Position numbers and translations under genes: made by a program. 64,000 bases of DNA from contig JBBHKE010000059.1 of NCBI GenBank assembly GCA_037447655.1, positions 186,001-250,000 on the forward strand. The letters are read 5' to 3'. Positions 1 through 42,334 of this stretch are shown here, in pieces (the stretch's first letter is position 1; every line of letters begins with the position of its first letter). The stretch is from Zygnema cylindricum. Taxonomy: Eukaryota > Streptophyta > Zygnematophyceae > Zygnematales > Zygnemataceae. The notes under the pieces are model-generated. The model was not told the DNA's origin. It searched no databases and saw only the letters and a program-made list of their open reading frames with translations.

Positions 1-497
1 AACACACGAATCCCATTATCATTTGCCAAAGAACCCCGCTCACCTATTCCAGAAACAGCCTCAAGCATCACCGCTGAGGCATTAACTATTTTAGAGAAGA
101 GTATACAAGACACATATAAGGTCAAAGAACGTCTGTCCATCCTGTCCACAATGCTTCCGGAGTTGGATAGCAACGAAAAAACTATAGATCTAACTCCTTC
201 AGCAGTTGCGTTACAAGCATTCAAAACCATCGTAATGCTCTCTCTCTTCAAGCTATTACTATTGAGGAGCGGTCTAGCCTCACTCCTCACATCAGTTTTC
301 TAGATAACAAATTGGGCATTTTTACGGTTAATGGGTTTGCTCCGGCACTTCCTCTCATTGATACAAGCGCAAAGCCAATTATCCTCGGTTCTGATTTTGC
401 CATCAAAATAGGTCTTACAACGGATAAGTTACAACCTACTACCACACGTCTATTGACTTCCGCGGTACCACAGAGCCAGTCCTCGGTATTACGATAG
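1..497 (+). pseudogene. gag-pol linker and retropepsin region, gypsy copy 1
   Basis: The first ~250 bases are open in frame 1. The frame then shifts near 250-257 and runs on to 497. The protein at 312-497 holds the retropepsin-like segment LPLIDTSAKPIILGSDFAI, where the family signature D-T/S-G-A appears as DTSA. The matching segment of copy 2 reads MDIGA. Known family role: the aspartic protease cleaves the gag-pol polyprotein. Both variants depart from the canonical D-T/S-G, so activity is doubtful. The frame breaks again at 497, just before the methyltransferase region. Confidence 0.55.
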
Positions 498-551
498 ATC
501 CAATCTGTTTTCAGTTTCAGAGTCAGTCAGCGACGGATTTCGCAGAAATTT

Positions 552-1938
552 ATGCTCACGCCTTTGTCACCAAGTGTAGTGACTATGAATGCTTGGTCGG
601 TCAAGACGTTATTTTTCGAGTTGGGGGGGGGGTTGATATGCATGATCACACATTTTCGTACAGGCCGAACAACTTTCCGGAACGTAAAATTTGCTTACCC
701 CTTATCTCAGCGCGGCAACCCATGCCTACTACGCCCCATTCGGCGCTGATCTTGCCAGCCTATGCCGCAGTTGGCATAGGTGCAGACATCCTTGAATCTC
801 TAACAGTGGATGAAATCTCACCAGATTCCCCGAGTTTACCTGAATTATTTAGTACACCGGGATTTATCATAAACTCTTCGGAATTTGACCAGCTTTATAA
901 ATTTACTATACCAATACCTTTATCTAGTATTCCAGATCCACCCTCCATTACGATGGATCCGTCCGGGTTCCTGCCCATTAAATGGACACCAGTCAATTTA
1001 CAACCTCACCAAAACGATCTCGTTATCTTGGACCTTTTTGCAGGAATAGGGACTTCACTTCTCTCTTGCCTTCGGAACGGTCTTCTGATAAAGCATTACT
1101 ATTCCATAGATATTGATCCTTTAGCCAGGCGCGCTCAGTTGCACCACTGTCAAGTCTTGCACGAAGAGTATCCTCATCTCTTACCCCAGTCTGCGTTCCA
1201 CGATATGCATTCGGCGTTGCCACAGGATATCCGGCAATAGGGAATCATCATTTAATGGAATTAAAACCAATTGATCTCCTCTTTGCCGGATGGGAATGTC
1301 AGGGTATGTCTAGGGCCGGGAAAGGTTTAGGTCTTTCACATCCGCGCACTAAGCTGTTCTTCGAGGTGGTTCGTCTGATCCATTTTTTCCAAAAATTGGA
1401 TCGTCCTTTTGGATACATCTTAGAGAACGTAGCAGCTTACAATGACCCCCGACCTACGGTCCTCGCAGATTATAAACGTATTGAATCATTAATTGGACCA
1501 CCACTGATCATTGATGCCGCACGCCACGGTTCGCTGGCCCACCGGGTCCGTTCCAAGTGGACTAACCTGGTGGACATGGGTCGGCTCCGAGAGGCTAACC
1601 TCGCTGTCCGACCACCTAACCTTTCCATTCAGGATGCACTTCTTCCATTTCATAAAGTCCAGACATGTATATTGACAGACTATCCTCCTGCATTTGGTCT
1701 TAACATCCCGGGCCAACCACTACGTGCACTGCCTACACTAGTTGCATATCCACACTCTCACGCATACTCGCATGATGGACCGGGCATGCTTCAGAATACT
1801 CATATAGGCAGCTTAGAGGAACCTACTGCCACAGAACGAGAACATCTTTTACATTTCATCTCAAGCACCACTGCTGCTCCGGGACTCACCGACAGGCAAC
1901 GTTGCACCTTACTTGGTCGTGTCATGGATCCCCAATGA
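552..1938 (+). pseudogene. DNMT3-like C5 cytosine methyltransferase domain of gypsy copy 1 (frameshifted)
   Basis: Two frames (593-1240 and 1255-1938) make up one methyltransferase. A 1-nt loss near 1235, judged against copy 2 (CGGCTAATAGG there, CGGCAATAGG here), splits them. SAM-binding motif I reads DLFAGIGTSLL, followed by SIDIDPLARR. Catalytic motif IV reads GWECQGMSRAGKG, with the Cys codon at 1297-1299. Motif VI is LENV, and a motif-VIII-like HRVRSKWTNL follows. The C-terminal motif RQRCTLLGRVMD resembles motif X of DNMT3 (RQR-LLGR). Motif IV has Glu before the Cys where most C5 methyltransferases have Pro. An in-frame TGA at 1936-1938 separates the domain from the RT region. The sequence-level match is DNMT3-like. 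Activity is inference, and this copy is broken. Confidence 0.85.
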
Positions 1939-1956
1939 CTGTCATTTGTCTTAGGC

Positions 1957-4091
1957 ATGGGGTTCGCAGCCGGTCGATACGCACAGAACCATCCGTCTCA
2001 ATCAGCTTGGGGGGGGCATACACCATTTAAACACACGGCTTCCAAATCCTCACCTTCTCTTCGGGGTACAACTTTTCAGCTCGCTCTTTTTCCATTCCCC
2101 GCTAAGTCTAACACTATTTATGATTTTTTGGAACCTAGTCACATGAGTTGGTCTCTCCCAGCATACACGGCCGCTAGATCTCAGGTACCGGTACGGGCAT
2201 CACCACACTGGTTAGCTGCATTTCCGTCTAGAAGTTGGCATCACGCTCTAAATTGTTTGCATCAACTTCCTGTCGAGTATGAGTTGGGTCACTCCTTGAT
2301 AGCAGATGAACAACTATCATTTGCACAAGCCATGGAAGCCATGACCATTAACACGCCTGAAAAACCGACATGGAAATTTGAAACTGGACTAACAAAAACT
2401 AAACGCGAACTGTTAGATGAAGTCGTAAACCAAAACGTAGACGCATTTGCTTTCTCCATGAAAGACTTAGGTCGACACACCACTTACAAAATGTCTATTG
2501 ACTTAGAAGATGACAAACCTATATTTAAGCCCAAGCATCGTCTATCCAAACCGAATGGGAATCTGTAGATAAACGATGCGCAGAGTTAGAAGAGGCAGGT
2601 TTGATTTATAGGTCCGATTCCACTTTCGCGGCACCCACCGTCATGCCTCGTAAAAAAAACGCGGAGGGGAATTTTACAGAACGTCGCATGTGTGGGGACT
2701 ATCGAGAACTGAATTCACGAACAATCCAGGACCGACATCCAATGCCGTTGGCCGAGGACATTTTTGATCACGTGGGCAGAGCTAAATATTTTAGCATCCT
2801 AGATCTGCGACAGGGATTTAATCAAATCGAAATAGAGGAAAAAGTTCGACACAAAACTCCATTTTGGGGTAGTGACGGACGTTGGGAATGGGCGGTTATG
2901 CCTTTTGGACTGAAAAATGCACCGGCAGTATTCCAGAAAGTCATGGACTTAGTCTTGGAGGGATGTTAGTTTGCCCGTTGCTATATTGACGATCTAATCA
3001 TCGCTTCAGCCTCTATAGAGGAACATGCAGTGCATATAGAGTGGGTGTTGAAGGAATTAAAAAAGGTAGGACTTAAATGTCATCCTGCCAAATGTACCTT
3101 TGGGGCCGAAGGGGTCCCATACCTTGGGCACTTTATCTCATCTGAGGGAATTACTCCGCTAGAAGTCAAAGTGGAAGCAATTAGTAAACTACCGGCACCA
3201 ACTGACTTGACTAGCCTGCGTGCATTTCTGGGGTTAGCCAATTATTACCGACGGTTTGTTCCTAGTTTCAGCACACTTGCATCACCATTAAATGAACTCT
3301 TGAAGAAATCTGTCCCGTTCACGTGGGGACCCTCTCAGATCAAGGCATTTCAAGGATTAAAGGACGCACTGTCCACCGCTCCCATTCTTCGTCCACCGAA
3401 TCATAAGTTACCATTTTGCCTACAGACAGACTTTGGTAAGCCAGGTATTGCGGCCATCCTAACTCAACGTAAACTCACAGGTGAAGAATATGTGGTGGCT
3501 TATGCCAGTCGAAGCAACAACCAAGCGGAATCAAATTACAGCAGTTATGAGGGAGAATGCCTTGCCGCAGTTTGGGGTATTGTGCATTTCCGACATTACC
3601 TTTATGGCAAGCCTTTTACCATTCTTACTGACCATCAACCGTTGCATTGGCTCATGACCAATGACAAGCTATCCGGCAAATTCGCCCGTTGGGCTCTTAT
3701 TTTACAGGAATATGATATGGAAATAATTCACCGACCCGGGCTCCTCAGCTTGAATGCCGACGGGCTCTCCAGGAATCCTTTGCCCAACTCCATTGATAAT
3801 GGGGTACGACAGGATTTTGATGGCGAAACGGTTGCCTCCTTATCGGCCGGAGCGCATCTGATCTACAGTTTTTCCGCACCTACATATCACAAAACCGAAC
3901 ACGATCCATGGCGGGACAGCCCTTTAATCCTTTTCCTATCTACTCAGTCTTTTCGGGCGGGCACCTTACCAATGGAAGAGGAGCGTGTTCGTAAGAGAGC
4001 CCAGAGTTACTTATGGATGGGGGGCTCACTTATTCGTCTTCTCTCAGATGGAAGTCACCGGCACGTCCCACGACCGACAGAACGACTATGA
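1957..4091 (+). pseudogene. Reverse transcriptase and RNase H of gypsy copy 1
   Basis: 1957-2568 covers the linker and the RT N-terminus (DDKPIFKPKHRLS). A frameshift near 2550 leads to 2601-2969, the palm domain: MCGDYRELN, YFSILDLRQGFNQI and VMPFGLKNAPAVFQ are typical Ty3-gypsy blocks. An in-frame TAG at 2967-2969 precedes the active-site box CYIDDLIIAS. 3030-4091 contains the thumb/connection (YLGHFIS, FLGLANYYRRFV), then RNase H (LQTDFGKPGIAA, SYEGECLAAVWG, LTDHQPLHWL). The frame ends at TGA 4089-4091. Known family role: copies element RNA into DNA in virus-like particles. The accumulated stops mean it is dead. Confidence 0.9.
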
Positions 4092-5384
4092 CTTATCAAC
4101 CAGATTCATACTGACCTTCGACACTATGGCACCAAACGGACTTTGAGCTTGGTACAGGCACGGTACTGGTGGTCTGGCATGCAGGCTGATGTGGCGGCTG
4201 TGTTGCAGGAATGTAGCACCTGTGACCGGCTACGAACTTCATTTTCTAACCGAGAGACCTCCCTTCAGCCCTTGCCTATTCGGGGTCTCTTTTACAGGTG
4301 GTCGTGTGATCTTCCAGGTCCCTTTCCCATTTTCGAAGGGGCAAACAATATATCATGAAATTATTCCATACACATGGACTTAGCCAGGAAAGTAAAGATC
4401 AGGTAAGTAAGGATGGAAACTGCCAAACTTACCACCGCAGCTTTCAAAGAGCACGTGCTCCTCCGGTATGGAGCCCTCGCAGAAGTACTTACCGAACAAG
4501 GAACCGAGTTCCGTGGCGAATTTCAAGAGATGCTGGACGAGGCGTTAATCGATCACCGGCGGACGAGCCGAGATCATCCTCAAGCAGACGGTTTGGCAGA
4601 GAGAGTTGTACAAACCTTTAAGCGTGCTTTGCGTAAACATTGCTTAGAAAAACAGATTACGGTGTGGGATGAATCATTGGGATATATTGTCATGGGTTAT
4701 CGCATGTCTGTACAGGCCAACCTGGCAATTTTCAGCCCCTATTATGTGTTGTTTGGTCGAAAACCACTATTAGGTAGGAATGTACAGAAAGCCGCAAGCT
4801 TACCTCTACTTCTTATGTCTGATTCTCTGTTTTTGGAAGAACTAACTAGACGAGCGTTGCTTTTTGCTAGAGAAATGCCCATGGCTTTTGAAAACCTGGA
4901 GATTGCCCAACATCGCGACTCCTTACGGTTTGCGACGACTCGCAGTGGCAGCTACCGGCCACAACAAAAACCCTTTCGGGTGGGGGATTACGTTTATTTG
5001 CGACGGCAAACTTTTGATACACTCGACACGGATGTGTCAGCTCACATCTTGAGGATAACAAAAATCGACCCCAATGGATTATTAAGCCTACAAGGGGCCG
5101 ACACGCGAACTTTGCGGGAGCATTCAAAAAATTGTGCCCCTTGCTATCTTTCTGATCTTTCCCACAGCATGGACCCGTGGCGGATGCCAATTACCGAGGC
5201 TACTGAGTGCCAATTATGCCGGCGGTCTGATGGAGAAACGACAATGCTCCTCTGTGACTATTGCAATCTGGGATTCCATATGGAGTATTTGGTTCCACCT
5301 CTGCACACTATCCCGGCTGGACAGTGGTTTTGCCACGGGTGTCGCGATCTACCAGTTGTCTTTACTAGCTCCCTCGCAGGCTGA
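4092..5384 (+). pseudogene. Integrase with C-terminal SH3-like domain and PHD finger, gypsy copy 1
   Basis: The HHCC region starts IHTDLRHYG and ends with CSTC. The catalytic core has WSCDLPGPFP (first Asp), TEQGTEF (second acidic residue, Glu here, Asp in the sibling copy: TDQGTQF) and the Glu in ADGLAERVVQTFK. A scrambled stretch at 4345-4415 breaks the frame. After the core, VGDYVYLRR...RITKIDPNGLLSL looks like the GPY/F or SH3-like integrase tail. Codons 5208-5342 then encode a PHD-type zinc finger: CQLC, CDYC, FHME[Y], WFCHGC. It is Cys4-His-Cys3 except that Tyr replaces the Cys after His. The sibling copy at 45 kb keeps that Cys but loses others. A chromatin-reading role in targeting integration is inference. 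Confidence 0.85.
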
Positions 5385-5390: not shown

Positions 5391-5403
5391 GGGGGGGGAG
5401 GAT
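5391..5403 (+). other. G-tract / candidate polypurine tract after the PHD stop codon
   Basis: A run of eight G followed by AGGA lies just after the integrase-PHD stop. The same tract is longer in the sibling copy (45311-45323). Polypurine tracts prime plus-strand synthesis in LTR retrotransposons. This one lies about 230 bp before the apparent 3' LTR start, which is unusually far, so the assignment is tentative. Confidence 0.4.
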
Positions 5404-5623
5404 TCCATCCTTACTTACTTGTTCTGTCTTTGATTTCCTTGTCAAGTCCATGTGCTCGGAGTATTTATTTCTTTCCGGGCGGATTCATTTATTATTTCTT
5501 GCAGTATATATGTTTTGTCCTTCGATTGTGGTCACAAATACTGTACATATGTAATGCCTTTCATTTTATTGTGTTTTTCGGCGACCCACGCGGGATGTGA
5601 TGCATGCCATTCACGGTTGTACT

Positions 5624-6640
5624 GTCATGCTCGATAGCTTTCATGCTGTAAGACGTCAGCGGGTATTCTGATTAAAACATGTACTAATTAAAGTTTCAGT
5701 GATGTGACAGGTATATATCCGAGAGTACAACTAGAGATTCGTACGGGACAAAAATCGAAATATACTCTCGTACGGCACCACGGGAACACAATGTGAAATC
5801 AGCGTGGCACTAGACCACGGTACGGCATCAGACGTCGAAATTCAAACGGCTACAAACCTGACAGGTGTCTGAAGTCATGAACACTTAGAGGTTCATGCAT
5901 CATTTTTGCTTAGCTTAGGGAGGGTTTTTATCCTCGAGGTGTAGATGTAAGGCAGTGAAACTCTGAGACCTCCATAAGTCCTCAGAGTAGACAGCTTCCA
6001 AGAAGCCTCTAGGATAATCCTGACCCCTTTGTGTTTCAGCAAAAATAACTGCCACCCTGGCAGACAAAAACCCTGACCACCTGCACCCCTGTGAAGGCAA
6101 GACTCCCCTGAGTCGGTAGCAAAAAGAATCTCTGAATTTGCTCCCCTGAGCAGTAAGTTATGGAGGGTCAAAGTTGACCTTTTATACAGAAGCTCTCTGG
6201 GAGAGAGGGTCCTATCTTCTAAATTTTTCTAAGTCCTATCTCTCTCACAGACTCTATCTACTGATGTACGAAACCAATCAGAATTGAGTTCCGTACGCAA
6301 AAGTACAGCTGCCGGTGTACTTTAGGTACGGACATTGTACGACATGGCCTAAATGTCGACAAATGTCATATCCGGATTCGGTACCATAATCTCCGGAGAT
6401 TCCACGATCCTGACTATTTTCTACTTGCTGTGATTTGTGAATTGTGTCTGTGGACTTCGCGTTTTCTTGCTGTCTGGATGCTGACCGCACGGGCTCGTAC
6501 TCACCTTGTCTGGCCTTGGAGGAATGTCGGTTATCTCGGCTCTTTCATCCGGCTAAGGAAGGGTTCTTACAAGCTGATTGGACTCCGGTACGGAATATTG
6601 ATGACTTCAGGGCCTAGTGGCTACTGTCGCAAATAAATGC
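5624..6640 (+). repeat. 3' LTR of gypsy copy 1, interrupted by a copia LTR fragment
   Basis: 5624-5957 and 6415-6640 align by eye with 17963-18143 plus 25045-25855. Shared landmarks are the GTCAGCGGGTATT region, the block around 5888-5950 (GGTTCATGCATC, GAGGTGTAGATG) and the GGAATATTGATGACTTCA block near 6592-6610. The left boundary is placed at TGTCATGC by analogy with the LTR start at 17963. The right boundary is simply where copy 2 begins, so the true LTR end may be missing. Confidence 0.65.
5958..6414 (-). repeat. CopB-type copia LTR fragment (3' part), inserted in the gypsy LTR
   Basis: It starts on + with TGAAACTCTGAGACCTCC, the reverse complement of the end of the CopB2 5' LTR at 29354-29371. 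It continues collinearly with that LTR (CCACCCTGGCAG, GACTCCCCTGAGTC, the CTCTCTGGGAGAGAG hairpin, GTACGACATGGCC) to about 6414, where similarity stops. The first part of the LTR, including the antisense tRNA-like cassette, is therefore absent. It is a truncated solo LTR in minus orientation. Confidence 0.75.
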
Positions 6641-8578
6641 TGGGAGAGACCAACTCATGTGACTAGGTTCCAAAAAATCATAAATAGTGTGATCTGTGTC
6701 AGACATAGCGGGGAAAGGAAAAAGAGCGAGCTGAAAAGTTATACCCCGAACAGAAGGTGAGGATTTGGAAGCCGTGAGTTTAAATGGTGTATGCCCCCCC
6801 CCCAGCTGATTGAGACGGATGGTTCTGTGCGTATCGACCGGCTGCGAACCCCATGCCTAAGACAAATGACAGTGATTGGGGATCCATGACACGACCAAGT
6901 AAGGTGCAACGTTGCCTCTCGGTGAGTCCCGGAGCAGCAGTGGTGCCTGAGATGAAATGTAAAAGATGTTCTCGTTCTGTGGCAGTAGGTTCCTCTAAGC
7001 TGCCTGTATGAGTATTCTGAAGCATGCGCGGTCCATCATGCGAGTATGCGTGTGAGTGTGGATATGCAACTAGTGTAGGCAGTGCACGTAGTGGTTGGCC
7101 CGGGATGTTAAGACCAAATGCCGGAGGATTGTCAGTCTGTATACAGGTCTGGACCTTATAAAATGGAAGAAGTGCGTCCTGGATGGAAAGATTAGGTGGA
7201 CAGACAGCGAGGTTAGCTTCTCGGAGCCGACCCATGTCCACCAGGTTAGTCCACTTGGAACACACCCGGTGGGCCAGCGAACCGTGGCGTGCGGCATCAA
7301 TGATCAGTGGTGGTCCAATTAATGATTCAATGCGTTTATAATCTGCGAGGACCGTAGGTCGAGGGTCATTACAAGCTGCGACGTTCTCTAAGATGTATCT
7401 AAAAGGACGGTCCAGTTTTTCGAAGAAGTGGATAAGACGCACCACCTCGAAAAACAACTTAGTACGTGGATCTGCGAGACCTGAACCTTTCTCGGCCCTG
7501 GACATGCCCTGACATTCCCATCCGGCAAAGAGGAGATCAATTGGTTCCAATTCCATTAAATGATGATTTCCTATTAGCCGGATATCCTGTGGCAACGCCG
7601 AATGCATATCGTGAAAAGCACACTTAGGTAAAAGATGAGGATACTGTTCGTGTAAGACTTGACAGTGATGCAGCTGAGCGCGTCTGGCCAAAGGATCAAT
7701 ATCTATGGAATAGTAATGTTTTATCACAAGACCGTTCCGAAGGCAAGAGAGAAGTGAAGTCCCTATTCTTGCAAAAAGGTCTAAGATGACGAGACCGTTT
7801 TGGTGAGGTTGTAAATTGACCGGTGTCCATTTAATGGGCAAGAACCCGAAAGGATCTATCGTAATGGAGGGTGGATCGGGAATACTAGATAAAGGAATTG
7901 GTATAGTAAACTTATAAAGCTGGTCAAACTCCGAAGAGTTTATGATAAATCCCGGTGTACTAAATAATTCTGGTAAACCCGGGGGATCTGGTGAGATTTC
8001 ATCCGCGGTTAGAGATTCAAGGATGTCTGCACCTATGCCAATTGCGGCATAGGCTGGCAAGATTAGCGCCAAATGAGCCGTAGTAGGCATGGGTTGTCGG
8101 GCCGAGATAAGGGGTAAGCAAATTTTACGTTCCAGAAAGTTGTTCAGTGTATACGAAAATGTCTGATCATGCATAACAACCCCCCCCCCAACTGGAAAAA
8201 TAACGTCTTGACCGACCAAGCATTCATAGTCACTATACTTGGTGACCAAGGCGTGAGCATAAATTTCTGCGAAATCCGTCGCAGACTGACTCTGAAACTG
8301 AAAACAGATTGGTTCTATCATAATACCGAGGACTGGCTCTGTGGTACCTGTAGAAGTCAATAGACGTGTGGTAGTGGGTTTTAACTTATCTGCTGTAAGA
8401 CCTATTTTGATGGCAAAATCAGAACCGAGGATAATTGGCTTTGCGCCTATATCCATGAGAGGAAGTGCCGAAGCAAACCCATTAACCATAAAAACGCCCA
8501 ATTTGTTATCTAGAAAATTGATGTGAGGAGTGAGGCTAGACCGCTCTTCATGGGTAATAGCTTGAAGAGAGAGAGCAT
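6641..8578 (-). mobile_element. Ty3-gypsy DNMT element, copy 2 (fragment, minus strand)
   Basis: The reverse complement matches copy 1 from about position 239 (the CTCTCTCTTCAAGC segment) to about 2170 (CACATGAGTTGGTCTCTCCCAGC). It therefore holds protease, methyltransferase and the start of the RT linker. The left end abuts the LTR of copy 1. The right end is cut by the CopA LTR, which begins at 8579, and no gypsy sequence resumes beyond CopA. The rest of the element was lost or was never present. Confidence 0.85.
6780..8501 (-). CDS. Retrotransposon protease-DNMT3-like methyltransferase polyprotein segment (573 codons open)
   Basis: This is the longest intact methyltransferase frame in the window. 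Residues 1-60 are retropepsin-like (MDIGAKPIILG at 16-26). Residues 238-550 form the C5 methyltransferase: motif I ILDLFARIGTSLL (239-251), SIDIDP (265-270), motif IV GWECQGMS with the catalytic Cys at 330, LENV (371-374), IIDAARHGSLAHR (400-412), a motif-IX-like EEPTATEREHL (503-513) and a motif-X-like TERQRCTLLGR (527-537). The order LFFE-VVRL, RPF-x-x-x-LENV, IDA...AHR...GR follows DNMT3-family catalytic domains. Two changes could impair it: G to R in motif I (FAGIG in copy 1, FARIG here) and R to C near 414. The listed first codon is TTG, because this is the inside of a polyprotein. The frame ends where a G-run (nine G) is one base longer than in copy 1. Confidence 0.85.
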   Translation of the reverse strand: MGVFMVNGFASALPLMDIGAKPIILGSDFAIKIGLTADKLKPTTTRLLTSTGTTEPVLGIMIEPICFQFQSQSATDFAEIYAHALVTKYSDYECLVGQDVIFPVGGGVVMHDQTFSYTLNNFLERKICLPLISARQPMPTTAHLALILPAYAAIGIGADILESLTADEISPDPPGLPELFSTPGFIINSSEFDQLYKFTIPIPLSSIPDPPSITIDPFGFLPIKWTPVNLQPHQNGLVILDLFARIGTSLLSCLRNGLVIKHYYSIDIDPLARRAQLHHCQVLHEQYPHLLPKCAFHDMHSALPQDIRLIGNHHLMELEPIDLLFAGWECQGMSRAEKGSGLADPRTKLFFEVVRLIHFFEKLDRPFRYILENVAACNDPRPTVLADYKRIESLIGPPLIIDAARHGSLAHRVCSKWTNLVDMGRLREANLAVCPPNLSIQDALLPFYKVQTCIQTDNPPAFGLNIPGQPLRALPTLVAYPHSHAYSHDGPRMLQNTHTGSLEEPTATEREHLLHFISGTTAAPGLTERQRCTLLGRVMDPQSLSFVLGMGFAAGRYAQNHPSQSAGGGAYTI

Positions 8579-9470
8579 TGTTGTTCTACGACCACTGAAA
8601 CAGGTGGAGCATCAGCAGTAGTAGTGGAAGTAGACATAATCTCACTCACAGAAGCTTATCAAGAATCCTATTAAACAGCTGTTTTCTACAGCTCACCAAA
8701 TCTGATACAATGAACCAAATTGCTTCACACTATACCACAGTATAGAATATCACAAAAACTGACAAATCCTAAAGTTTCAGCTTAATTGATCCAACATACA
8801 CCAAGATAAGCAACTCAGAAGTTTCCCAAAAACAGTCTGCAGATTTACACAGTCTGGAAGTCTGGATACATAAAATGTTCTACGTCCTAAGTCTTATACT
8901 CTTCACTTAGTTGTACTTCTACATAGTGCTGTGCCGCTGATACAAGTGTTCCTACAAGATACGTCCAAAAGAACTAAACTGCCACTAAGGTCTAAGTGCA
9001 CCTGATCACGATAAAACTAATCTATCACTGCACACTCAATATGACTAAGAATCCTATACAGGTTATTTAATCAAATACTTGTCGCCTGGCTTAGTGAATC
9101 TCGTCCGTTGACTTGATTCGAATCAACCGCAGTAGCGCAGTTCAATTCCTGATTATATTCAAAAATATCCGCAGCTTCGTAGCAGCTGCGTTATCACACA
9201 CAAAAGTTCGCCGCAGCTGCGTTTGTCTAGTTGCGTAGCAACTGCGTTGTTATGTACCAAAATATCCGTAGTTGCGTTTGACCCGTTGCGTCGCAGGCTG
9301 CGGTTGTCCGTACAAAAATAACCGCAGCTGCGCTTGTTCCATCTGCGTCGCAGCTGCGTTGTCGGTGCCAAAATCCTGTACTGTGATTCAAGTGATGACG
9401 CGTGTCCATATAGATCTATTTTTCCGCCGTCCTATAGATTTGCTGAGACTTAAAGCTTTTCAAAACAACA
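8579..9470 (-). repeat. CopA 3' LTR
   Basis: It matches the other LTR at 13778-14669 with a couple of dozen differences by eye. It contains a GC-rich zone (about 9120-9365) packed with palindromic GCAGCTGCG-type motifs. On the minus strand it starts TGTTGTTTTGAAAAGC and ends CGTAGAACAACA. Confidence 0.9.
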
Positions 9471-9482: not shown

Positions 9483-9496
9483 TTTAGACTCAGTAT

Positions 9497-26175: not shown

Positions 26176-26822
26176 AGTATATAAATTAAGTTGCACGAAT
26201 TATCACATAAAATTATAACTGCTTTAATAGTTGGGTAGAGCGTGGCTTAAAGCTGATACCCGTACCCTAACAGGCTACTAACTACTTTGGCATTGAGCTG
26301 CGGTGTGATTACGATCACGTGGAACCGAAGCAACTCTGGGAGACATTTACAGTATCCTACTGGATGCTATCGCTTCAGGTGAGTAACCGATCCTTGTGGG
26401 TGCACGCCCGATCTAGGCTATCGAGTGTACTCGCTTAGAGGGTTAGAGATCTTACCGAAGGTTGCACCCTTGTTCTTCGAAAGAACATCATTATTGCATG
26501 GTCTTAGATCTGACCTTGATTGGTCGTGAGTAGCACTTTCCTCTTTTCTTATATCTGGCCGTGTTGGCCCTGGATAGTTTCCTCCTTTATTACATCTGGC
26601 CGCAAGCGGCCTTGTATAGGTGACATGAGTTTGCTTGGTGTGCCTTGATGTGAGTGGAATTGTGAAAGACAATTTACGAGTCGACTAACTCCGGTGATAC
26701 AAGATAGACCGAACTTCTTCGTGTTTCTAGATTGCGGTTATTAGTGTACTTTTGTGTGTGTTCGGCATTTAGCTGCATTCGGATAGGACGATCTTCTTCG
26801 GATAGGACGATCTTCTGGTTAC

Positions 26823-28037
26823 ATGCCAACGGACTGGAATAATTTACAGCTCCCCGCTGGTACCACTAGAAGCTCAGGCTCTTACCGGGGGCCGCCCAGA
26901 GAGTCGATTACAGCCGGCTCCCCTCCGATATCTTTTCCAAACTCAACAGTTCAGTCGCAATTTTTAGGATCACCCAGTCCGTCTACATCTGGTCTTTCTT
27001 CTCTCCAGAGGTCTACGTCATCTGTTTCTTCGTCTGTCACCCACAGTTCGGGGGAAGATTCGGACACGGACTCACTTGACATACAGGGTCTAGGGTTACC
27101 GTCGTTAATTTTCTCAGTGAACAGTACCTTACACACTAATTCTAGTCCTTCTAGCGTGGACATGGCTATATCCATGGACAACGGAGGAGGCAAACATCAT
27201 TTTTGTTTTTCAGGTCTCAAGGACACCATGTCCTTGTCACACTTTCGCATGCTTTTTGATACTGAAATGCATGACCTCGCATTTCGATACCAAGACCGTA
27301 AAGACCTACGGGTTGCTTTTTTTTTACTAGGAAGATACCTCAGAGGATGTGCCCTATCCCTTTATACACGGAAATATGAAGAAATTTGTGTTATGACTGA
27401 AATAGCACCTGCCTATTCTGGAGCTCTAGTCATAATTGGCAGCCACAAAATTCCTTTCCAACCCGCTGTCCCTGCAGTTTATGACTCCGCAGACAATGAA
27501 ATTTCATCTACAATACCTGAGGTTCCCCATCAATTTGTTGTCGCAGCTAGGGCTGCAATTCCGGCTAGACCTGAAATCTTAGTCCCTCTTAGAGATCCAG
27601 TCTCATTAATTTTCAATTTATTACAGGACGAGTATCGAATGCAGAATCTTAACCAAGTCAAAGAATTAATGAATTTCGAACGCAAACCGGATGAAAGAGC
27701 CTCGGCATTGCGGTCACGTATGGAAACTTTGCGTGAAGCCCTACTGGATCTAATGTCAGAGGCTGAGGCGGTACAAAAATTTGTGTGTCAATTTCCCACA
27801 CAATCTCGACGGTTCCTTCAGAATCGTCTGACCAAAGCATATGGCCTTAAATTCACTTTCGAGCAGGCTGTAGAGTATGCTGTAAAGTATGAAATGCAGA
27901 CTAGCTGGTGGGACGCTTATGAGCGGCCAAAACCTTCACCTAAAGATTACCCAAATCCGAATCCTAACCTGAATCCTAACCCGCGCAACCTATGGCCTAA
28001 CCCAAGACCTCCAAGGGCCCCCGCCATGGGATCCTAA
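26823..28037 (+). CDS. Gypsy gag (404 aa), capsid region
   Basis: Open from ATG 26823. The first ~90 residues are Ser/Pro/Thr-rich and probably disordered. Residues ~120-370 form a retrotransposon capsid-type domain: FRMLFDTEMHDLAFRYQDRK, VSLIFNLLQDEYRMQ, FERKPDERASALRSRMETLR and FVCQFPTQSRRFLQNRLTKAY match the C-terminal half of Ty3-type gag. The tail is Asn-Pro repeats (PNPNPNLNPNP). TAA at 28035-28037 ends it, and a zinc-knuckle sequence continues in a shifted frame. It is the best-preserved frame of the host gypsy element and lies upstream of the CopB2 insertion at 28318. Confidence 0.85.
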   Translation: MPTDWNNLQLPAGTTRSSGSYRGPPRESITAGSPPISFPNSTVQSQFLGSPSPSTSGLSSLQRSTSSVSSSVTHSSGEDSDTDSLDIQGLGLPSLIFSVNSTLHTNSSPSSVDMAISMDNGGGKHHFCFSGLKDTMSLSHFRMLFDTEMHDLAFRYQDRKDLRVAFFLLGRYLRGCALSLYTRKYEEICVMTEIAPAYSGALVIIGSHKIPFQPAVPAVYDSADNEISSTIPEVPHQFVVAARAAIPARPEILVPLRDPVSLIFNLLQDEYRMQNLNQVKELMNFERKPDERASALRSRMETLREALLDLMSEAEAVQKFVCQFPTQSRRFLQNRLTKAYGLKFTFEQAVEYAVKYEMQTSWWDAYERPKPSPKDYPNPNPNLNPNPRNLWPNPRPPRAPAMGS

Positions 28038-28049
28038 CCGACGACTCCT

Positions 28050-28317
28050 GGGTGCGTATATATTTTCGGTGCGGTCACAGTGGTCAGGGCGCATGCAGTT
28101 GTCCGACGCATGTGATGTCACATTAAGAACCTTGATTTCATTTATCAAAATCAAATAAAAAACGGCGGTATACATGCTCGCTCGGCAAAATTGGCCACTC
28201 CACCTAAAGGGGAAGAGAAAGACACTCCCCCCAAAATCAACCAGAGGGACCGAGATAGAGCAGAGATGCAGGCTGGCGTGGCGGCCATGAAGAAGGAGCA
28301 GTTTGCCGCGCTTATGG
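28050..28317 (+). pseudogene. Gypsy gag tail with degenerate zinc knuckle
   Basis: One base out of frame with gag, codons read YFRCGHSGQGACSCP. It aligns with CX2CX4HX4C but has Tyr for the first Cys and Gln for the His. Further on, SAKLATPPKGEEKD...MQAGVAAMKKEQFAALM is a charged linker still open up to the copia insertion. Confidence 0.5.
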
Positions 28318-29371
28318 TGTAGAAATTTATGGTCCATTTAACGTATTTTCTAGGTCTAAATAGAAATATAGAAAGAAGCCGAGGCAGTTACCTCTAACTT
28401 CTCTCTCCAACTCTCAAACTTGTAGCAGTCACTGAGAAATCGGAGAGGGAGCTAGAGCCATGGCTACCTAGGCTATCCAGAGGTTTACAAGAAATATATA
28501 TTAGTTAGGGGTTAATTTACTAAAAGGTATATGCCGGCCACAGGATTTGATCCTAGTACCTATCGGAAGGTAGACAGCCAGTAGCCGATAGCCTTAGCCG
28601 TTTAGTCTTTAACTAGTGTTACGTACTATATGGTTTGATATTCAATTAAAAATTATCAGGTAGGATAATTCATTTAACTGTAACTTTTTACGGGAAACAT
28701 AGATCCAGTAATGTAACAGTACGGATTACGGTACGGATAAGAAACCAATACCGCACATTTATTTCTTTACTGAAACGAATGCCGCGCATGTATTTATTAC
28801 AGTTACGATTAAATGTGAATTTAATCAGATGACCGGAATTAACGCCGAGATCGCGGAAGAGGATTTTGGCGGTTTTTCGTCATCGCCACATCGGATGACA
28901 CGTGGCGGAATGACATTGGATCGCGGCATCTCCGAGGATTAAGGGAGCGAATCCAAACATACCACGTGTCGGCATTTAGGCCATGTCGTACAGTGTCCGT
29001 ACAGAAAGTACACCGGCAGCTATACTTTTGTGTACGAAACTGTAATCTGATTGGCTCCGTACATCAGTAGATAGAGTCTGTGTGAGAGATGTGACTTAGA
29101 AAAATTAGGAGATAGGACCCTCTCTCTTAGAGAGCTTCTGTACAAAAGGTCAACTTTGACCCTCCATAACTTACTGCTCAGGGGAGCAAATACAGAGATT
29201 CATTTTGCTATCGACTCAGGGGAGTCTTGTCTTTACAAGGGTGAAGGTGATGAGAGTTATTGTCTGCCAGGGTGGCAGTTGTTTTTTCTGAAACACAAAG
29301 GGGTCACGGTTATCCTAGAGGCTTTTAGGAAGCTGTCCATTCTGAGGACTTATGGAGGTCTCAGAGTTTCA
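28318..29371 (+). repeat. CopB2 5' LTR
   Basis: TGTAGAAATTTATGG...GAGTTTCA, 1054 bp. It shares with the CopB1 and CopB3 LTRs the start TGTN(A)AAATT, the CCATGGC-CTTCAGTGACTACAA-like block, the GTACGACATGG block, a CTCTCTCTTAGAGAG hairpin and the GCAAATnCAGnGATTC-GACTC-GGGAGTC block. Confidence 0.88.
28530..28610 (-). other. tRNA-like A-box/B-box cassette, antisense in the CopB2 LTR
   Basis: Minus strand: CTAAACGGCTAAGGC (A-box-like), then CTAGGATCAAATCCTG (B-box-like, with a self-complementary T-arm AGGAT/ATCCT), then CCTTTTAG, a Pol III terminator-like T4. Confidence 0.5.
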
Positions 29372-33509: not shown

Positions 33510-34970
33510 TGTTGTTTTTGAAGATTAAGTTTCGTGCGTATTCGTCGTTTCGTGCGTTTGCGATGTTTCGTGTGTACGCGGTTTTTTTTTGGTGCGTACA
33601 TGTTCACCAAGTGTAGCGTGGAGGTTCGCATGGTTTCATTGATTGGGGGAGTAAATGTACGGATGCATTTAAAGGGGCGTAAAAGACTAATTGAGTGGCG
33701 CGAAATGCGCAATAGAAATGGACGGCGGATCGTGAAGCGATCCGACGTTTATTATACGCAACATTTAAAGTGTACGTCGATCGTACGGAAGATAATGCGA
33801 CAGGTGGCATTTATGAAAAAGGACGTCGCTGGTACGTAAAATCTATTTTGGACAGGTGTACCTTTATTTCGGCAGGCGTCATTTATGACAAAGTACGTAG
33901 ATGCGGTACGAAACAGATTTGGATGGTACGATATCATTTCGTCAAGTGGATTGAAGTGGCACGTGGCGCGACATCGAGGGTGCCGAATAAGAGTGACGGA
34001 CGGTGGATATAGGCCGTCATATTTTTATTCAAGTAGTGGTGACGCGAAATCGCGTCAATCACACGATGTTTATTTTGGACGGCCCGGATTGTTTTACGTA
34101 ATTCGAGGAGTTTCGTTGATTGACTGAGATGACTCAGCACACGATTTTGTGAGATTGTGTGTACTTGAAATATTTGGAACAACATTTCTTTGTCTTATTT
34201 TCAATAATAAATTAGTGTTGATATGACGTTTATATTTACGTGGTCAATTAGGATTTCGACATGTTAATTTGTGTGTGTAAAATATCGTACTTGTAGACAA
34301 GTGTACGCTTACGATTGCTTGACTCTCAGGTGGACGCTTACGATTAGTTACTCTTACTAGAAGGTTATTATGCGTAAATAGGATTTAGTGACAGTTCAAA
34401 ATATACATTGGTTATTTTGACACTTAGTGATTCGTTGACAGCTCACAAGTGTATATATAGGAATGAGCTTTGTTAGGAATTAATCATCAATGCTTAGCGT
34501 GAAAAGTAGGAACCAAAGATGTAGTAATTTAGGGTTGCCGATCATGTCATGCATTTAAATGATACATTTATTATCTGATTATACTTTTGTTTATATGTGA
34601 TGCATTCTCTTATTATTATTTACATATAATATTTATATGCTTGTTTGTTATGCATTATTTATGCATTTGTCCTAGGGTTTCTTGTGATTTTCATGTAACC
34701 CTAGTTGTTGTTTAATGCATCTGTGTATGCATTTTGTTCCGTCAGTGTACGGATTGTTAATGCATCTGTGTATGCATTATGTTGCGTCTGTGTACGCATT
34801 GTTTTAGGGTGAGTTGTGATTTTCACGGATCCCTAATTGTTATTTGTTGCGTCTGCGTACGCATTGGGAGGGTGCACCTTTCAATATGATTGTTCATCAG
34901 CCTAGCTTTGCTTAGCTTCTTGGGTGATAGTTTGGGTGGCTTCTGCGGTCTTTTAGACCAAAGAACAACA
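33510..34970 (+). repeat. LTR of a third copia type (LTR-C)
   Basis: TGTTGTTTTTGAAGATTAAG...AAAGAACAACA with terminal TGTTGT/ACAACA and a GGGGGAG tract just upstream. Its start resembles the CopA LTR start (TGTTGTTTTGAAAAGC). It contains repeated TTTCGTGCG words near the start and repeats of TGCATCTGTGTATGCATT / GCGTCTGTGTACGCATT near 34717-34870. No second copy of this LTR was found in the window. Confidence 0.7.
34715..34868 (+). repeat. Short repeats within LTR-C
   Basis: Four imperfect copies of an approximately 17-bp word (TGCATCTGTGTATGCATT and TGCGTCTGTGTACGCATT forms), partly palindromic, with a longer duplicated frame around AGGGT-TTTGTGATTTTCA. Confidence 0.65.
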
Positions 34971-35898
34971 TTATTGCAGATACACTACAACCCACTACTA
35001 ATCGGTTGTTAACTTCCGCAGGAAATACAGAACCTGTCTTGGGTATGATAAAAGAACCTCTCTGTTTTCAATTTCAGTGTCAATCCGTAACCGATTTCGC
35101 AGAAATATACGCTCAAGCCTTGCTCACCAAGTGTAGTGATTACGAATGCTTGGTCGGCCAACACGTCACTTTTCGAGTGGGGGGGGGGGGGTGGATATCC
35201 ATGATCAAACATTTTCGTACAGACCAAACAATTTTCCAAACCACAAAGTTTGCTTACCTCTCATCTCGACTCGACAACCCATGTCGACTACGACTCATTC
35301 TGAGTTTGACTTGCTAGCCTATGGCGCATTTAGCATAGGCGCCGAAATTCTTGAATCTTTAAAAGCGGACAAAATATTACCAGATCTGCAAGGAGTGCCG
35401 GAATTATTTAGCACATCCGGATTTATCATTGACTTCTTAGAATTTGACAGATTGTATAAATTTACGGTACCGATTCCCTTATTCAATATTCCGGATCCAC
35501 CCGCTATTACAATGGATCCTTCCGGGTTTTTGCCCATTAACTCGAAACCAGTCAGTTTACAACCTAACCCGAACGATCTCCTTATCTTAGACTTTTTTGC
35601 AAGTATAGGTACCACACTTCTCTCTTGCCTTCGGAACGGTCTTCTGATTAAGCAGTATTATTCTGTAGATATTGACCCTTTGGCTAGACGCGCTCAGTTA
35701 TACCACAATCAAAACCTGCATGAACAATACCCTCACCTCTTACCACAGACCGCTTTTCACACCATGCACTCCGCTATACCACAGGATATTCGCCTAATAG
35801 GAAATCATCATTTGTCGGAATTAGAACCGATCGATCTCCTTTTGGCCGGATGGGAATTTTAGGGTTTGTCTAGGGCCGGTAAGGGCTTAGGTCTTGCA
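34971..35898 (+). pseudogene. Gypsy copy 3: protease tail and methyltransferase N-terminal half (catalytic Cys lost)
   Basis: Homologous to copy 1 positions ~425-1330. 35146-35862 has motif I LDFFASIGTTLLSCL and SVDIDPLARR. The catalytic loop reads GWEF-stop-GLSRAG: the Cys codon TGT is TTT (35857-35859) and the next codon CAG is TAG. A G-run of about 13 (35178-35190) shifts the frame between the protease part and the methyltransferase. The solo copia LTR begins at 35899, right after the catalytic loop. Confidence 0.85.
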
Positions 35899-37078
35899 TC
35901 AAACTCTGAGACCTCCATTGGCCCTCAGAGTAAACAGATCCAAAAGAAGCTTATCTAGATAGTGCCGACTCCAAGTTGATATAAACCCAAATGACTGACC
36001 CCTTGACAATCACAAACCCATTATAGCTTCACCCCTGTGAAATATGACTTTCTGTGTGCTCAGTTCCACCACAGAATGCAAAGTTAAAATATGAGATTTA
36101 GACCCATTCACCCACTTTGACTTTCCCTTAGAAATACCGCCACCCTGGCAGACAAAAACTCTGATCGAATACACCTCTATGTAGCCTGGACTCCCCTGAG
36201 TCAGCAGCAAAAAGAATCACTGAAAATGGTCAAGTAAATTGATAGTTATGGCTGGCTAAAGTTTGCCATTTATATAAGGTGCTCTCTCAGAGAGAGGGTC
36301 CTATCTGCCAAATTTTTCTAAGTCTTATCTCCCTCTAAAACACTATCTAATGAAGTACGGCACCAATCAACTTAGTGTGTCGTACAGAAAAGTATAGGTG
36401 CCGATGTACTTTCTGTACGGCCATTGTACGACATGGCCAAAATGTTGACACATGTCATCTCCAAATTCGTTCACGTAATCCTCGGAGATGTCGCAATCCA
36501 ATGTCATTTTGCCACGTGTCATCCTATGTGGCGATGAACGCAAACCACCAAAATATTTTTCCGCGATCTCGGCATCTTTTTCGGCCTTCCGATCAAAACA
36601 AGTTTTCGATCGTAGCCGTCATAAATACGTGCGCGGTATTTGTTTCGTGTTCAAAACAAATGTCGGTATCCGTTTCATATATATAAACCGTACTCCGTAC
36701 TATCTATAACTGTATATATGCACTACGTATATATTTCCAATTAAATGATAAAGTCTACATGTAACTAATTAAATAATTATCAAACCTTTTATGTCTTAAT
36801 ACTAGCGCTAGATTTAATGGTTAAAGCTACCGGCTAGGATTGGTTGACAGACGGCAAGTACCAGGATCAATTCCCGGTTCCGTCAACTAACTTTTGGTAA
36901 GTCTACCTAATTTATCCCCTGTCTTCTCTAAAGAGCTTAGGCAGCCATGGCTCTAGCTCCCTATCCAGCCTTCAGTGACTACAACAAGTGTGGGGGCTTG
37001 GAGAGGGGAGTTAGAGGCAAACTGCCTCTGCCTTTTTCTATCCTATTTACAGACCTAGAAAATACACAAATATCAACA
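35899..37078 (-). repeat. Solo CopB-type copia LTR with TSD TTGCA
   Basis: The 1180-bp LTR in minus orientation starts T(C)AAACTCTGAGACCTCC on + and ends ...ATATCAACA. The 5-bp duplication TTGCA is perfect (35894-35898 and 37079-37083), and gypsy methyltransferase coding continues across it. It arose by LTR-LTR recombination that removed a whole copia element. Confidence 0.92.
36806..36893 (+). other. tRNA-like A-box/B-box cassette, antisense in the solo LTR
   Basis: Best example of the set. A-box-like TTTAATGGTTAAAGC (compare CTCAGTGGTTAGAGC of plant tRNAs) and B-box-like CCAGGATCAATTCCCGG, about 50 bp apart, followed within 25 bp by CTTTTGG. The orientation is opposite to the LTR. Confidence 0.55.
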
Positions 37079-38164
37079 TTGCAGACCCGCGTACTAAACT
37101 GTTATTCGAGGTTGTGCGGCTTATCTATTTTTTTCAATCACTGAACCACCTTTTGGATACGTCTTAGAAAACGTTGCAGCTTATAATGACCCTGACCCAC
37201 GGTTCTCGCAGATTACAATCGCACGGTTCTCGCAGATTACAAACGCATTGAATCATTAATTAGACCGCCACTGATCATAGATGCCGCACGCCACGGCTCG
37301 CTAGCCCACCGAGTTCGTTCCAAGTGGACTAACCTGGTGGATATAGGCCGGCTTCGAGAAGCTAACCTTGCTGTCCGACCACCTAAACTTTCCATTCAAT
37401 AAGCACTTCTTCCATTTCATAAGGTCCAAACATATGTCTAGATAGACTATCCTGCTGCATTTTGTCTTAACATCCTTGGCCAACCATTACGTGCACTTCC
37501 TACACTAGGCGCATATCCAAACTCTCACGCATATTCCCATAATGGACCTGGTACGCTTCAGAACACACATACGGGCAGTCTAGAAGAACCTACTGCTGTA
37601 GAGCGAGATCACCTTCTCCATTTCATCCCAGGCACCACTGCTGCCCCAGGACTCACTAAGCGGCAGCACTGCACATTACTTGGTCCGGTCATAGATCCAC
37701 AATTACTGTCATTTGTGTTGGGCATAAGGTTCGCAGCCGGTCGATACGCACAAAACCATCCGTCTCAATCAGCTGTGGGGGGGAATATACCATTTAAACA
37801 CACTGCATCAAAATCCTCACCTTCTCTTTGGGGTACAACTTTTCAGCTTTCTCTCTTTCCTTCCTCTAAGTCTGAGAGAAATCACACTATTTACAATTTC
37901 TTGGAACCTAGTCATATGAGTTGGTCCATCCCAGCTTACACATCGGCTAGGTCTCAGATGCCGGTACGCGCAGCACCACACTCGACAATTGCATTTCCAT
38001 CTAGATGTTGGCATCATGCAATAAATTGTTTGCATCAGCTTTCGACTGAGTATGAATTGGGACAGTATTTAATAGCGGATGAACAGTTAGCGTTTGCACA
38101 GGCCATGGAAGCCATTACCATCAACGCACCTGAAAAACCAACGTGGAAAATGGGACGGGACTAA
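37079..38164 (+). pseudogene. Gypsy copy 3: methyltransferase C-terminal half and linker
   Basis: Continues from copy 1 position ~1345: LFEVVRL, LENVAAYNDP, a 24-bp duplication around CACGGTTCTCGCAGATTACAA (37198-37245), then TAGCCCACCGAGTTCGTTCC (AHRVRSKW) and the motif IX/X region (RDHLLHF, LLGPV). Stops include TAA near 37400 and TAG near 37440. The linker at 37715-38164 retains long identity to copy 1 (RYAQNHPSQSA, HTASKSSPSLWGTTFQL). Confidence 0.85.
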
Positions 38165-42295: not shown

Positions 42296-42334
42296 TGGGA
42301 GTTAAAAAGAAAGTAGACTAGAAAATAAGGGGAG

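What the first reader, a model, noticed from the sequence alone, without database searches (positions are those of the whole stretch)
6780..8501. A gypsy retrotransposon family that encodes its own DNMT3-like cytosine methyltransferase
Seen: three copies (552-1938; 6780-8501; 34971-38164) carry a methyltransferase between protease and reverse transcriptase, with motif I (DLFAGIGTS), the catalytic Cys loop (GWECQGMS), LENV, AHRVRSKW and a motif X RQR-LLGR. Copy 2 keeps a 573-codon frame. Known: C5 methyltransferases with the LFFE...LENV...IDA...AHR order are DNMT3-type. Retrotransposon capture of DNMTs has been described in dinoflagellates and charophytes (de Mendoza and colleagues, 2018, from memory). 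Inference: the element could methylate its own new copies, hiding from or exploiting host silencing. The Glu before the catalytic Cys, where Pro is usual, is a family peculiarity worth testing.
Basis: partly seen in the sequence, partly recalled or inferred. Interest (0 to 1): 0.95.

Follow-up and report, generated by a model that had tools for sequence, protein, structure and literature searches.

The report
Retrotransposon with built-in DNA methyltransferase
In what is probably a green alga, a large family of jumping genes carries its own DNMT3-type DNA-methylating domain plus a histone-reading finger, a distinctive new version of a rare arrangement first described in 2018.

Summary
The domain is real. 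Window copies 1 and 2 match Pfam DNA_methylase; the nearest solved structures are DNMT3A/3B. The three window copies are relics: copy 1 is frame-broken, copy 2 is a truncated piece with a damaged SAM motif and no reverse transcriptase, copy 3 has lost the catalytic Cys and is split by insertions. Elsewhere in the genome a single 2395-aa frame shows gag zinc knuckle-DNMT3-RT-RNaseH-IN-PHD. Three clades carry the DNMT before RT. Glu-Cys replaces Pro-Cys throughout clade A (Glu 28 of 28, Cys 27 of 28); clades B (10 of 10) and C (2 of 2) keep Pro-Cys. The ends are split repeats A-coding-B-GC-A-B with a palindromic joint and 4-bp target duplications, exact in 4 of 6.

Gypsy elements with internal Dnmt3 and DIRS-like repeats were described in Klebsormidium nitens in 2018 (PMC5890265), so this is a new variant of a known kind. 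New against that paper's main text: a PHD finger and the Glu-Cys motif (word searches). Self-methylation remains inferred: CpG decay is weak, and Pro-to-Glu could mean altered or lost catalysis.

The parts
1..5378 (+). Copy 1 (runs off the window's left end): PR region, DNMT, RT, RNase H, integrase and PHD finger, with frame breaks
   Evidence: tblastn of the 2395-aa frame of L009: residues 600-2394 in five segments, 89-95% identity; Pfam hits
998..1983 (+). Copy 1 DNMT3-like domain: DLFAGIGTS, GWECQGMS, LENV, AHRVRSKW, RQRCTLLGR; frame change near 1234-1240
   Evidence: start computed from the alignment
623..632 (+). G10 tract in the protease region of copy 1
2009..2016 (+). G8 tract directly after the DNMT (G9 in 9 of 16 clade A copies); possible central polypurine tract or slippage site
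5208..5342 (+). PHD finger at the integrase C-terminus of copy 1
   Evidence: Pfam PF00628 E 9e-9; PDB sequence matches PHF12, BAZ2B, KDM5-type, WSTF, PHF21A
5391..5398 (+). 3' polypurine (G8) tract of copy 1
5402..5634 (+). Repeat B1 of copy 1
   Evidence: 85.4% to B1 of the element at C1344
5641..5956 (+). Start of repeat A2 of copy 1; similarity ends at 5956 where another repeat begins
   Evidence: 89.0% to the first 387 nt of A1 of C1344; repeat from 5956
6617..8585 (-). Copy 2: truncated fragment, residues 676-1331 only (PR end, DNMT, linker); 601-aa open frame 6780-8585; a Copia terminal repeat abuts its 5' side
6828..7814 (-). Copy 2 DNMT3-like domain: DLFARIGTS (damaged motif I), GWECQGMS, LENV, AHRVCSKW
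26745..28319 (+). Gag of copy 3
   Evidence: tblastn residues 12-550, 73%
34952..35898 (+). Copy 3 PR end and first part of DNMT: DFFASIGTT, GWEF-stop (catalytic Cys lost)
35899..37056 (+). Insertion that splits the DNMT of copy 3
   Evidence: gap between tblastn segments; the stretch matches repeats elsewhere in the window
37057..39255 (+). Copy 3 rest of DNMT, RT, start of RNase H
39276..43438 (+). Nested element inside copy 3 with direct terminal repeats 39276-40375 and 42335-43438 (93.9%)
   Evidence: self-BLAST
43411..45290 (+). Copy 3 RNase H end, integrase, PHD
   Evidence: tblastn residues 1763-2392, 75-76%

Best explanation
This is a lineage of retrotransposons with a Ty3/Gypsy-type pol, in clade A read as gag-PR-DNMT3-RT-RNaseH-IN-PHD. 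The DNMT3-type domain was most likely acquired once, before clades A, B and C separated, and selection has kept it since. Its most likely job is de novo C5-cytosine methylation of the element's own new DNA (cDNA, its circular form, or the fresh insertion and its flanks). The PHD finger on the integrase would hold the integration complex at H3 tails that lack active marks, so that targeting and methylation act together, as ADD plus methyltransferase do in animal DNMT3. Shown: architecture, homology, conservation, split repeats, target duplications. Inferred: enzymatic activity, substrate, PHD ligand, benefit to the element.

For the ends, the likely route is this. Reverse transcription gives repeats of the form B-GC-A. 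The cDNA ends are joined into a two-repeat circle, and integrase opens that circle at a GACA-GC-TGTC palindrome. That yields A-coding-B-GC-A-B with 4-bp target duplications. This route is a model only.
For: A single 2395-aa frame in L009 holds a zinc knuckle (weak, below the Pfam cut-off), DNA_methylase, RVT_1, RNase H, integrase zinc domain, rve and PHD. An aspartyl protease match precedes the DNMT in L011 (2e-4, just below cut-off). A profile of nine real copies hits DNMT3A at 8.5e-20, well above other classes, and a model of the window's own domain has DNMT3A/3B as its 50 listed Foldseek hits (best 7e-11). In clade A the catalytic Cys is kept in 27 of 28 copies, LEN[VI] in 25 of 28 and AHRVR in 23 of 28. 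DNMT in A1 x A2 comparison: pN 0.147 at saturated pS 0.81, 18 pairs. RT and DNMT identities rank the clades alike, A against B+C. Repeats and target duplications. A Dnmt3 from another retrotransposon class methylated CG de novo in yeast (PMC5890265, section read).
Against: Clade A has Glu where a Pro is called invariant (PMC2965745 passages). Ka/Ks within A2 is 0.37 (38 of 78 pairs kept). The DNMT is less constrained than RT (pN 0.048) or IN (0.075). CpG decay is weak: C/T differences 0.148 at CpG against 0.118 at CpH in A1 and 0.207 against 0.189 in A2, G/A differences in A2 even lower at CpG (0.145 against 0.176); CpG o/e 0.69-0.94 in A. VIA-align ties M.HhaI with DNMT3A. The K. nitens Gypsy Dnmt3 gave no activity in yeast, which its authors call inconclusive. 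I have no expression or methylation data for this genome.
Confidence: 0.58

Rival explanations
1. In clade A the domain is a catalytically silent or altered partner, like DNMT3L or DRM3: the Pro-to-Glu change ended or retuned methylation, and the domain now binds DNA or SAM or stimulates another methyltransferase (clade B elements or the host's).
For: The Pro before the catalytic Cys is described as invariant, and OsDRM3, which has Cys without Pro, is predicted inactive (PMC2965745 passages). In the exact context AGWECQG no C5-methyltransferase-like frame was seen in viral contigs (0 of 7 matches) or prokaryote genomes (0 of 58), against 27 of 40 for AGWPCQG in viral contigs (the Pro control was not run on prokaryote genomes).
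Against: Cys (27 of 28), LEN[VI] (25 of 28) and AHRVR (23 of 28) remain in clade A, whereas DRM3 and DNMT3L lack the motif IV Pro-Cys and other catalytic residues.
Confidence: 0.25
2. The domain methylates RNA (element RNA or a tRNA) rather than DNA.
For: Suggested for LINE DNMTs by the 2018 authors (PMC5890265 Discussion). Weak CpG decay would fit.
Against: The closest class is DNMT3, not DNMT2 (8.5e-20 against 3e-7).
Confidence: 0.08
3. Passenger: the domain hitchhikes with no function and is on its way out.
For: Many copies are broken: 12 of 28 A copies and 6 of 10 B copies have no stop in the aligned DNMT codons, frame shifts not counted, in a sample leaning to open frames.
Against: Three clades with 38-52% identical DNMTs still keep the motifs; pN is far below pS at saturation; synonymous GAA/GAG drift at a fixed Glu.
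Confidence: 0.04
4. The domain was captured from a phage or bacterial methylase rather than from a eukaryotic DNMT3.
Against: The sequence profile prefers DNMT3A by about 35 bits over HaeIII. One relative was confirmed in viral contigs, at 31% over residues 8-144, and none in prokaryote genomes.
Confidence: 0.05

Closest known systems
KnitGypsy-Dnmt3 of Klebsormidium nitens (de Mendoza et al. 2018, PMC5890265)
   Same: Intronless Dnmt3-type domain in the Pol ORF of an LTR Gypsy element; no DRM-like rearrangement; purifying selection; repeats with the structure of a DIRS element but Gypsy domains (section and figure legend)
   Different: Here a PHD finger follows the integrase and clade A has Glu-Cys (the words PHD, chromodomain, finger, proline, cysteine and glutam- do not occur in the paper's main text; figures and supplements not seen). 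Ends and target duplications are resolved here. The genome is 352.8 Mb against 104 Mb for K. nitens. I could not compare sequences.
SymbioDIRS-Dnmt3 (Symbiodinium)
   Same: Dnmt3 within Pol; split direct repeats A-coding-B-A-B
   Different: Tyrosine recombinase (passages); here a DDE-type integrase (rve) and 4-bp target duplications
Plant DNMT3 / DRM and animal DNMT3A/3B
   Same: Catalytic domain type and motif order
   Different: Host genes; Pro-Cys motif; DRM is rearranged; animal DNMT3 carries ADD and PWWP (PMC12344493 passages)
Chromoviruses (Gypsy with chromodomain)
   Same: Chromatin-reader module at the integrase C-terminus
   Different: PHD finger instead of a chromodomain

Membership tests
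Ty3/Gypsy LTR retrotransposon | gag, aspartyl protease, RT, RNase H, then DDE integrase in Gypsy order | tested here: met
   L009 2395-aa frame and frames of L011, L016, L018; zinc knuckle and protease matches are weak
Ty3/Gypsy LTR retrotransposon | Simple LTRs at both ends with a tRNA primer site beginning TGG after the 5' LTR | tested here: not met
   Split repeats A-coding-B-GC-A-B; no TGG within 25 nt after A1 in 7 of 7 elements. Hence Gypsy-type pol, not a standard LTR element.
KnitGypsy-Dnmt3 type | Dnmt3-type domain inside the Pol ORF of a Gypsy element | tested here: met
KnitGypsy-Dnmt3 type | DIRS-like repeats A-coding-B-A-B | tested here: met
   All four repeats in 6 clade A elements (C1344, C1915, C829, C2602, C1811, C449) and 1 clade B element (C1042). 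C1407 shows B-A-B at its 3' end only; none found around L013.
KnitGypsy-Dnmt3 type | Sequence relatedness of RT and DNMT to the K. nitens copies | not testable with these tools
   No K. nitens sequence was reachable; protein search switched off
DNMT3 | Best match to DNMT3 among C5-methyltransferase classes, unrearranged motif order | tested here: met
DNMT3 | Pro-Cys in motif IV | tested here: not met
   Clade A: Glu in 28 of 28 copies; met in clade B (10 of 10) and C (2 of 2). So clade A is DNMT3-like with a departing motif IV.
DNMT3 | De novo DNA methylation activity | not testable with these tools
   needs a bench assay
DIRS | Tyrosine recombinase, no target-site duplication | tested here: not met
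   Pfam finds rve and H2C2; 4-bp duplications exact in 4 of 6 elements
Chromovirus | Chromodomain after the integrase | tested here: not met
   Pfam finds a PHD finger there and no chromodomain in the scanned frames

The most novel reading that the evidence does not exclude
Clade A encodes a working C5-methyltransferase that uses a Glu-Cys motif in place of the supposedly invariant Pro-Cys. Tethered by an H3K4me0-type PHD finger on the same polyprotein, it methylates the element's circular cDNA or insertion site. The element integrates by opening a two-repeat circle at an internal palindrome, a route I do not know for DDE-integrase retrotransposons.
Probability: 0.13. Interest if true: 0.88.

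Novelty: new variant of a known kind. Interest (0 to 1): 0.62.

Why it matters
It indicates that DNMT-carrying Gypsy-type elements are not confined to one small charophyte genome: here several diverged clades co-exist, with 123 scored matches (40 of the 41 places examined are element copies) and some very young insertions (A repeats 100% identical at C1344). A de novo methyltransferase and a PHD reader in one polyprotein mirror the logic of animal DNMT3 (catalysis plus H3 tail reading) in a parasite. A Glu-Cys clade and a Pro-Cys clade in one genome make the role of the motif IV proline testable with natural domains. The resolved ends give a concrete model of how a Gypsy-type element with DIRS-like repeats could integrate.

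Tried and rejected
Every whole-genome search after the first did not complete, so I have no copy counts beyond, no rRNA, and no count of DNMT-free relatives. First AlphaFold job on a two-row alignment: pLDDT 30, unusable. Second job with 15 viral methylases in the alignment: mean pLDDT 63, under 50 at 106-114 (just after the catalytic loop), 146-150, 178-273 and both ends; it shows the fold but cannot place the Glu reliably. VIA-align does not separate DNMT3A from M.HhaI (tied Z).

Idea that copy 2 is a domesticated gene: not needed. It is a truncated piece with Ka 0.030-0.034 and Ks 0.085-0.099 against L009 and L019 (ratio about 0.3-0.4) and a damaged motif I. Strong methyl-CpG decay: not borne out. 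Canonical-LTR reading of the ends: rejected by the A-B-A-B mapping. Repeats were not found within the 10-kb loci L012 and L013, and the flanks fetched for L013 added none, so the clade B structure rests on one element. Literature on a PHD finger in Gypsy integrases: none seen in the listings; the two listed papers whose single mention I opened use the words for a host gene near an insertion and in a reference title. On a Glu-Cys motif: listing, one paper opened in passages. These searches cover an open-licence library only.

Host: a CMT-like exon (L007; best chains 9mvy, 7ubu, 4fsx at 3.4-3.7e-29, other DNMT1 chains from 1e-12; 4fsx recalled as maize ZMET2) and a YGGT gene point to the green lineage. 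Assembly size is nearest to Zygnema cf. cylindricum SAG 698-1a_XF in a published table (359.8 Mb, 3,587 scaffolds; PMC11096116 section read) but not equal (352.8 Mb, 2,689 contigs), so the species is unproven.
Full report
WHAT IS IN THE WINDOW. The window is contig C46, 186001-250000, of an unnamed 352.8-Mb genome in 2,689 contigs. At 6780-8585 on the minus strand lies a 601-residue open frame with a Pfam DNA_methylase match (E 4e-10), and a second match lies in copy 1 (1e-9). Mapping the 2395-residue frame of another genomic copy (L009) onto the window shows three copies of one family. Copy 1 runs from the window's edge to 5378 and holds PR region, DNMT, RT, RNase H, integrase and a PHD finger, with frame breaks. 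Copy 2 (6617-8585) is a fragment, residues 676-1331 only; a Copia element with 97.8% identical terminal repeats (8579-9468, 13778-14667) abuts its 5' side. Copy 3 runs from gag at 26745 to PHD at 45290, split by several insertions.

None of the three is an intact enzyme. Copy 1 keeps DLFAGIGTS and GWECQGMS but is frame-broken. Copy 2 has DLFARIGTS and AHRVCSKW. Copy 3 has DFFASIGTT and GWEF-stop plus an insertion of about 1.2 kb.

THE FAMILY ELSEWHERE IN THE GENOME. The DNA_methylase search of the whole genome scored 123 of 782 candidates, and all 123 are over the cut-off. I examined 41 places: 40 of those 123 rows plus window copy 3. Twenty were picked with a leaning to long open frames and 16 for long profile spans, so intact copies are over-represented. 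One (L007) is a host chromomethylase-like exon by its nearest solved structures. Of the other 40, 28 fall in clade A (the window's family), 10 in clade B and 2 in clade C.

L009 is one 2395-residue frame with a weak zinc knuckle (0.009, below the cut-off), DNA_methylase, RVT_1, RNase H, integrase zinc and core domains and a PHD finger. An aspartyl protease match (2e-4, just below the cut-off) precedes the DNMT in L011, and the PHD finger is also found in L016 and L018. Clade B frames L012 and L013 have DNMT-RT-RNase H-integrase in the same order; their PHD matches (21.5 and 17.5 bits) lie below the Pfam cut-off of 24, and gag and protease were not recognised there. The clade C frame L020 shows DNMT-RT-RNase H. 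Clade A and B DNMTs are 41.6% identical, B and C 51.9%, A and C 37.9%. RT-RNase H gives 56.8 (A-B), 81.9 (B-C) and 54.9% (A-C). Both rank A against B+C, which fits one acquisition followed by shared descent.

WHAT THE DOMAIN IS. A profile of nine real copies (alignment A1) hits DNMT3A at 8.5e-20, DNMT3B at about 1e-17, HaeIII at 5e-9, HhaI and DRM2 at about 1e-7 and DNMT2 at 3e-7. A model of the window's own copy 2 domain built with 15 viral methylases (mean pLDDT 63, poor in 106-114 and 178-273) has DNMT3A/3B as its listed Foldseek hits, while VIA-align ties M.HhaI and DNMT3A. So sequence favours DNMT3, and structure says C5-methyltransferase fold.

THE GLU-CYS MOTIF. In clade A the residue before the catalytic Cys is Glu in 28 of 28 copies, written GAG 16 times and GAA 12 times; the Cys is kept in 27 of 28 (window copy 3 is the exception). 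Clades B and C have Pro (10 of 10 and 2 of 2). As a matched control I scanned viral contigs for DNA encoding AGWECQG and AGWPCQG: 0 of 7 and 27 of 40 matches lie in a C5-methyltransferase-like frame by a simple downstream EN-x test. The test covers only that exact context. A paper on Arabidopsis DRM3 calls the Pro invariant and predicts inactivity without it (PMC2965745, passages seen). That is the main reason for doubt about catalysis in clade A.

SELECTION. Nei-Gojobori Ka/Ks medians for the DNMT: 0.157 within A1 (44 of 45 pairs kept), 0.374 within A2 (38 of 78), 0.262 within B (17 of 45), 0.143 for A3 against A1 and A2 (29 of 115); pairs with saturated Ks, Ks of 0.02 or less, or fewer than 200 codons were dropped, which removed all 130 A1 x A2 pairs. 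Uncorrected A1 x A2 proportions (18 pairs from 3 and 6 copies) are pN 0.147 and pS 0.811 for the DNMT, against pN 0.048 for RT, 0.075 for IN, 0.145 for PHD (12 pairs), 0.24 for the protease region and 0.28 for gag. So the domain is constrained, less than RT and integrase, more than gag. CpG decay is weak: CpG o/e is 0.69-0.94 in clade A and 0.55-0.70 in clade B, and C/T differences are only slightly more frequent at CpG than elsewhere (0.148 against 0.118 in A1; 0.207 against 0.189 in A2). G/A differences are 0.107 against 0.093 in A1 and go the other way in A2 (0.145 against 0.176).

THE ENDS. At C1344 the order is A1 85514-86444, coding, B1 94737-94978, GC, A2 94981-95911, B2 95912-96154; A1/A2 are 100% and B1/B2 99.6% identical. 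The same order is seen at C1915, C829, C2602, C1811 and C449 in clade A and at C1042 in clade B. C1407 shows B-A-B at its 3' end only. Outer ends are TGTCATGC...GCACGACA in clade A, and the internal joint is the palindrome GACA-GC-TGTC, found in 9 loci including clade B (L024) and clade C (L020), against 0.26 expected for one 10-mer in 268 kb. Flanking 4-mers are identical in 4 of 6 clade A elements (TTGG, CCCT, CCCC, AAGG) and differ by one base in the other two. A G8-G12 tract precedes B1 in 11 of 14 clade A copies that cover the site, and another G tract follows the DNMT in 16 of 16 clade A copies looked at (lengths 6-10, G9 in 9). There is no TGG-type primer site within 25 nt after A1 in 7 of 7 elements.

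HOW IT MOST LIKELY WORKS. If B starts at the polypurine tract, ordinary reverse transcription gives repeats B-GC-A at both ends. Joining the ends gives a circle: coding-B-GC-A|B-GC-A-back to coding. Opening it at the second B-GC-A joint gives A-coding-B-GC-A|B, as observed, with the palindrome as the attachment site. This is a model; circles were not seen, and how synthesis is primed is open. The DNMT3-type domain sits in Pol, so it would be carried with the cDNA. The PHD finger resembles PHF12, BAZ2B, KDM5-type, WSTF and PHF21A fingers. Several of these bind H3 unmodified at K4 (recalled, not from a call), and the finger lacks the cage Trp of K4me3 readers (my reading of the sequence, recalled criterion). 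The Dnmt3L PHD-type domain reads unmethylated H3K4 (stated in PMC2965745). The combined picture is targeting to silent chromatin plus local methylation. The benefit to the element (hiding cDNA, insertion into tolerated sites, self-restraint) is open; the 2018 authors list similar options (PMC5890265 Discussion).

WHAT IS KNOWN. PMC5890265 (sections on charophyte elements, yeast assay and Discussion read; passages elsewhere) describes KnitGypsy-Dnmt3 in Klebsormidium nitens: Dnmt3 in Pol of an LTR Gypsy element, purifying selection, conserved key residues, and repeats arranged as in DIRS. The words PHD, chromodomain, finger, proline, cysteine and glutam- do not occur in its main text; its figures and supplements were not available to me. 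PMC12344493 (passages) again mentions retrotransposon DNMT3s in streptophytes and dinoflagellates. Hence a new variant of a known kind. The assembly here is not the 104-Mb K. nitens one; the green lineage is supported by a chromomethylase-like exon and a YGGT gene, but the species is not identified.

Noticed in passing
window 623-632, 2009-2016, 5391-5398; L009 4096, 5482, 8869: G8-G12 tracts bracket the DNMT (the upstream one not in the A2 copies) and precede repeat B1; the one after the DNMT and the 3' one are both preceded by AGCT in many clade A copies, and clade B also has G tracts right after its DNMT. Possible central polypurine tract or slippage site.
   Followed up: partly
L008, L012, L013, L020, L022-L025, L041-L044: Sister DNMT-Gypsy clades B and C with the canonical WPCQGYS motif; clade B has lower CpG o/e (0.55-0.70).
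   Followed up: yes
L056/L024 (C1042 280216-283126): Further repeat units similar to A and B lie beyond B2 in the clade B element, as if tandem or nested insertions.
   Followed up: no
L007 1498-1797: Exon of a host chromomethylase-like gene (GGPPCQGASGHNRFR), nearest solved structures 9mvy, 7ubu and 4fsx at 3e-29 to 4e-29.
   Followed up: partly
window 8579-14667: Near-complete Copia element (977-aa frame 9941-12874; terminal repeats 8579-9468 and 13778-14667 at 97.8%) next to copy 2.
   Followed up: partly
window 18123-25045: Copia-type frames between 92% identical repeats 18123-19169 and 23998-25045.
   Followed up: no
window 39276-43438: Element nested in copy 3 with 94% identical terminal repeats and a 530-aa frame (40703-42295) that was not identified.
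   Followed up: no
window 61776-62621: YGGT-family gene fragment (Pfam 3e-10), likely a host gene and one of few non-transposon features here.
   Followed up: partly
window 52336-52875: Open frame rich in SPPPP repeats, of the kind seen in algal cell-wall proteins (recalled).
   Followed up: no
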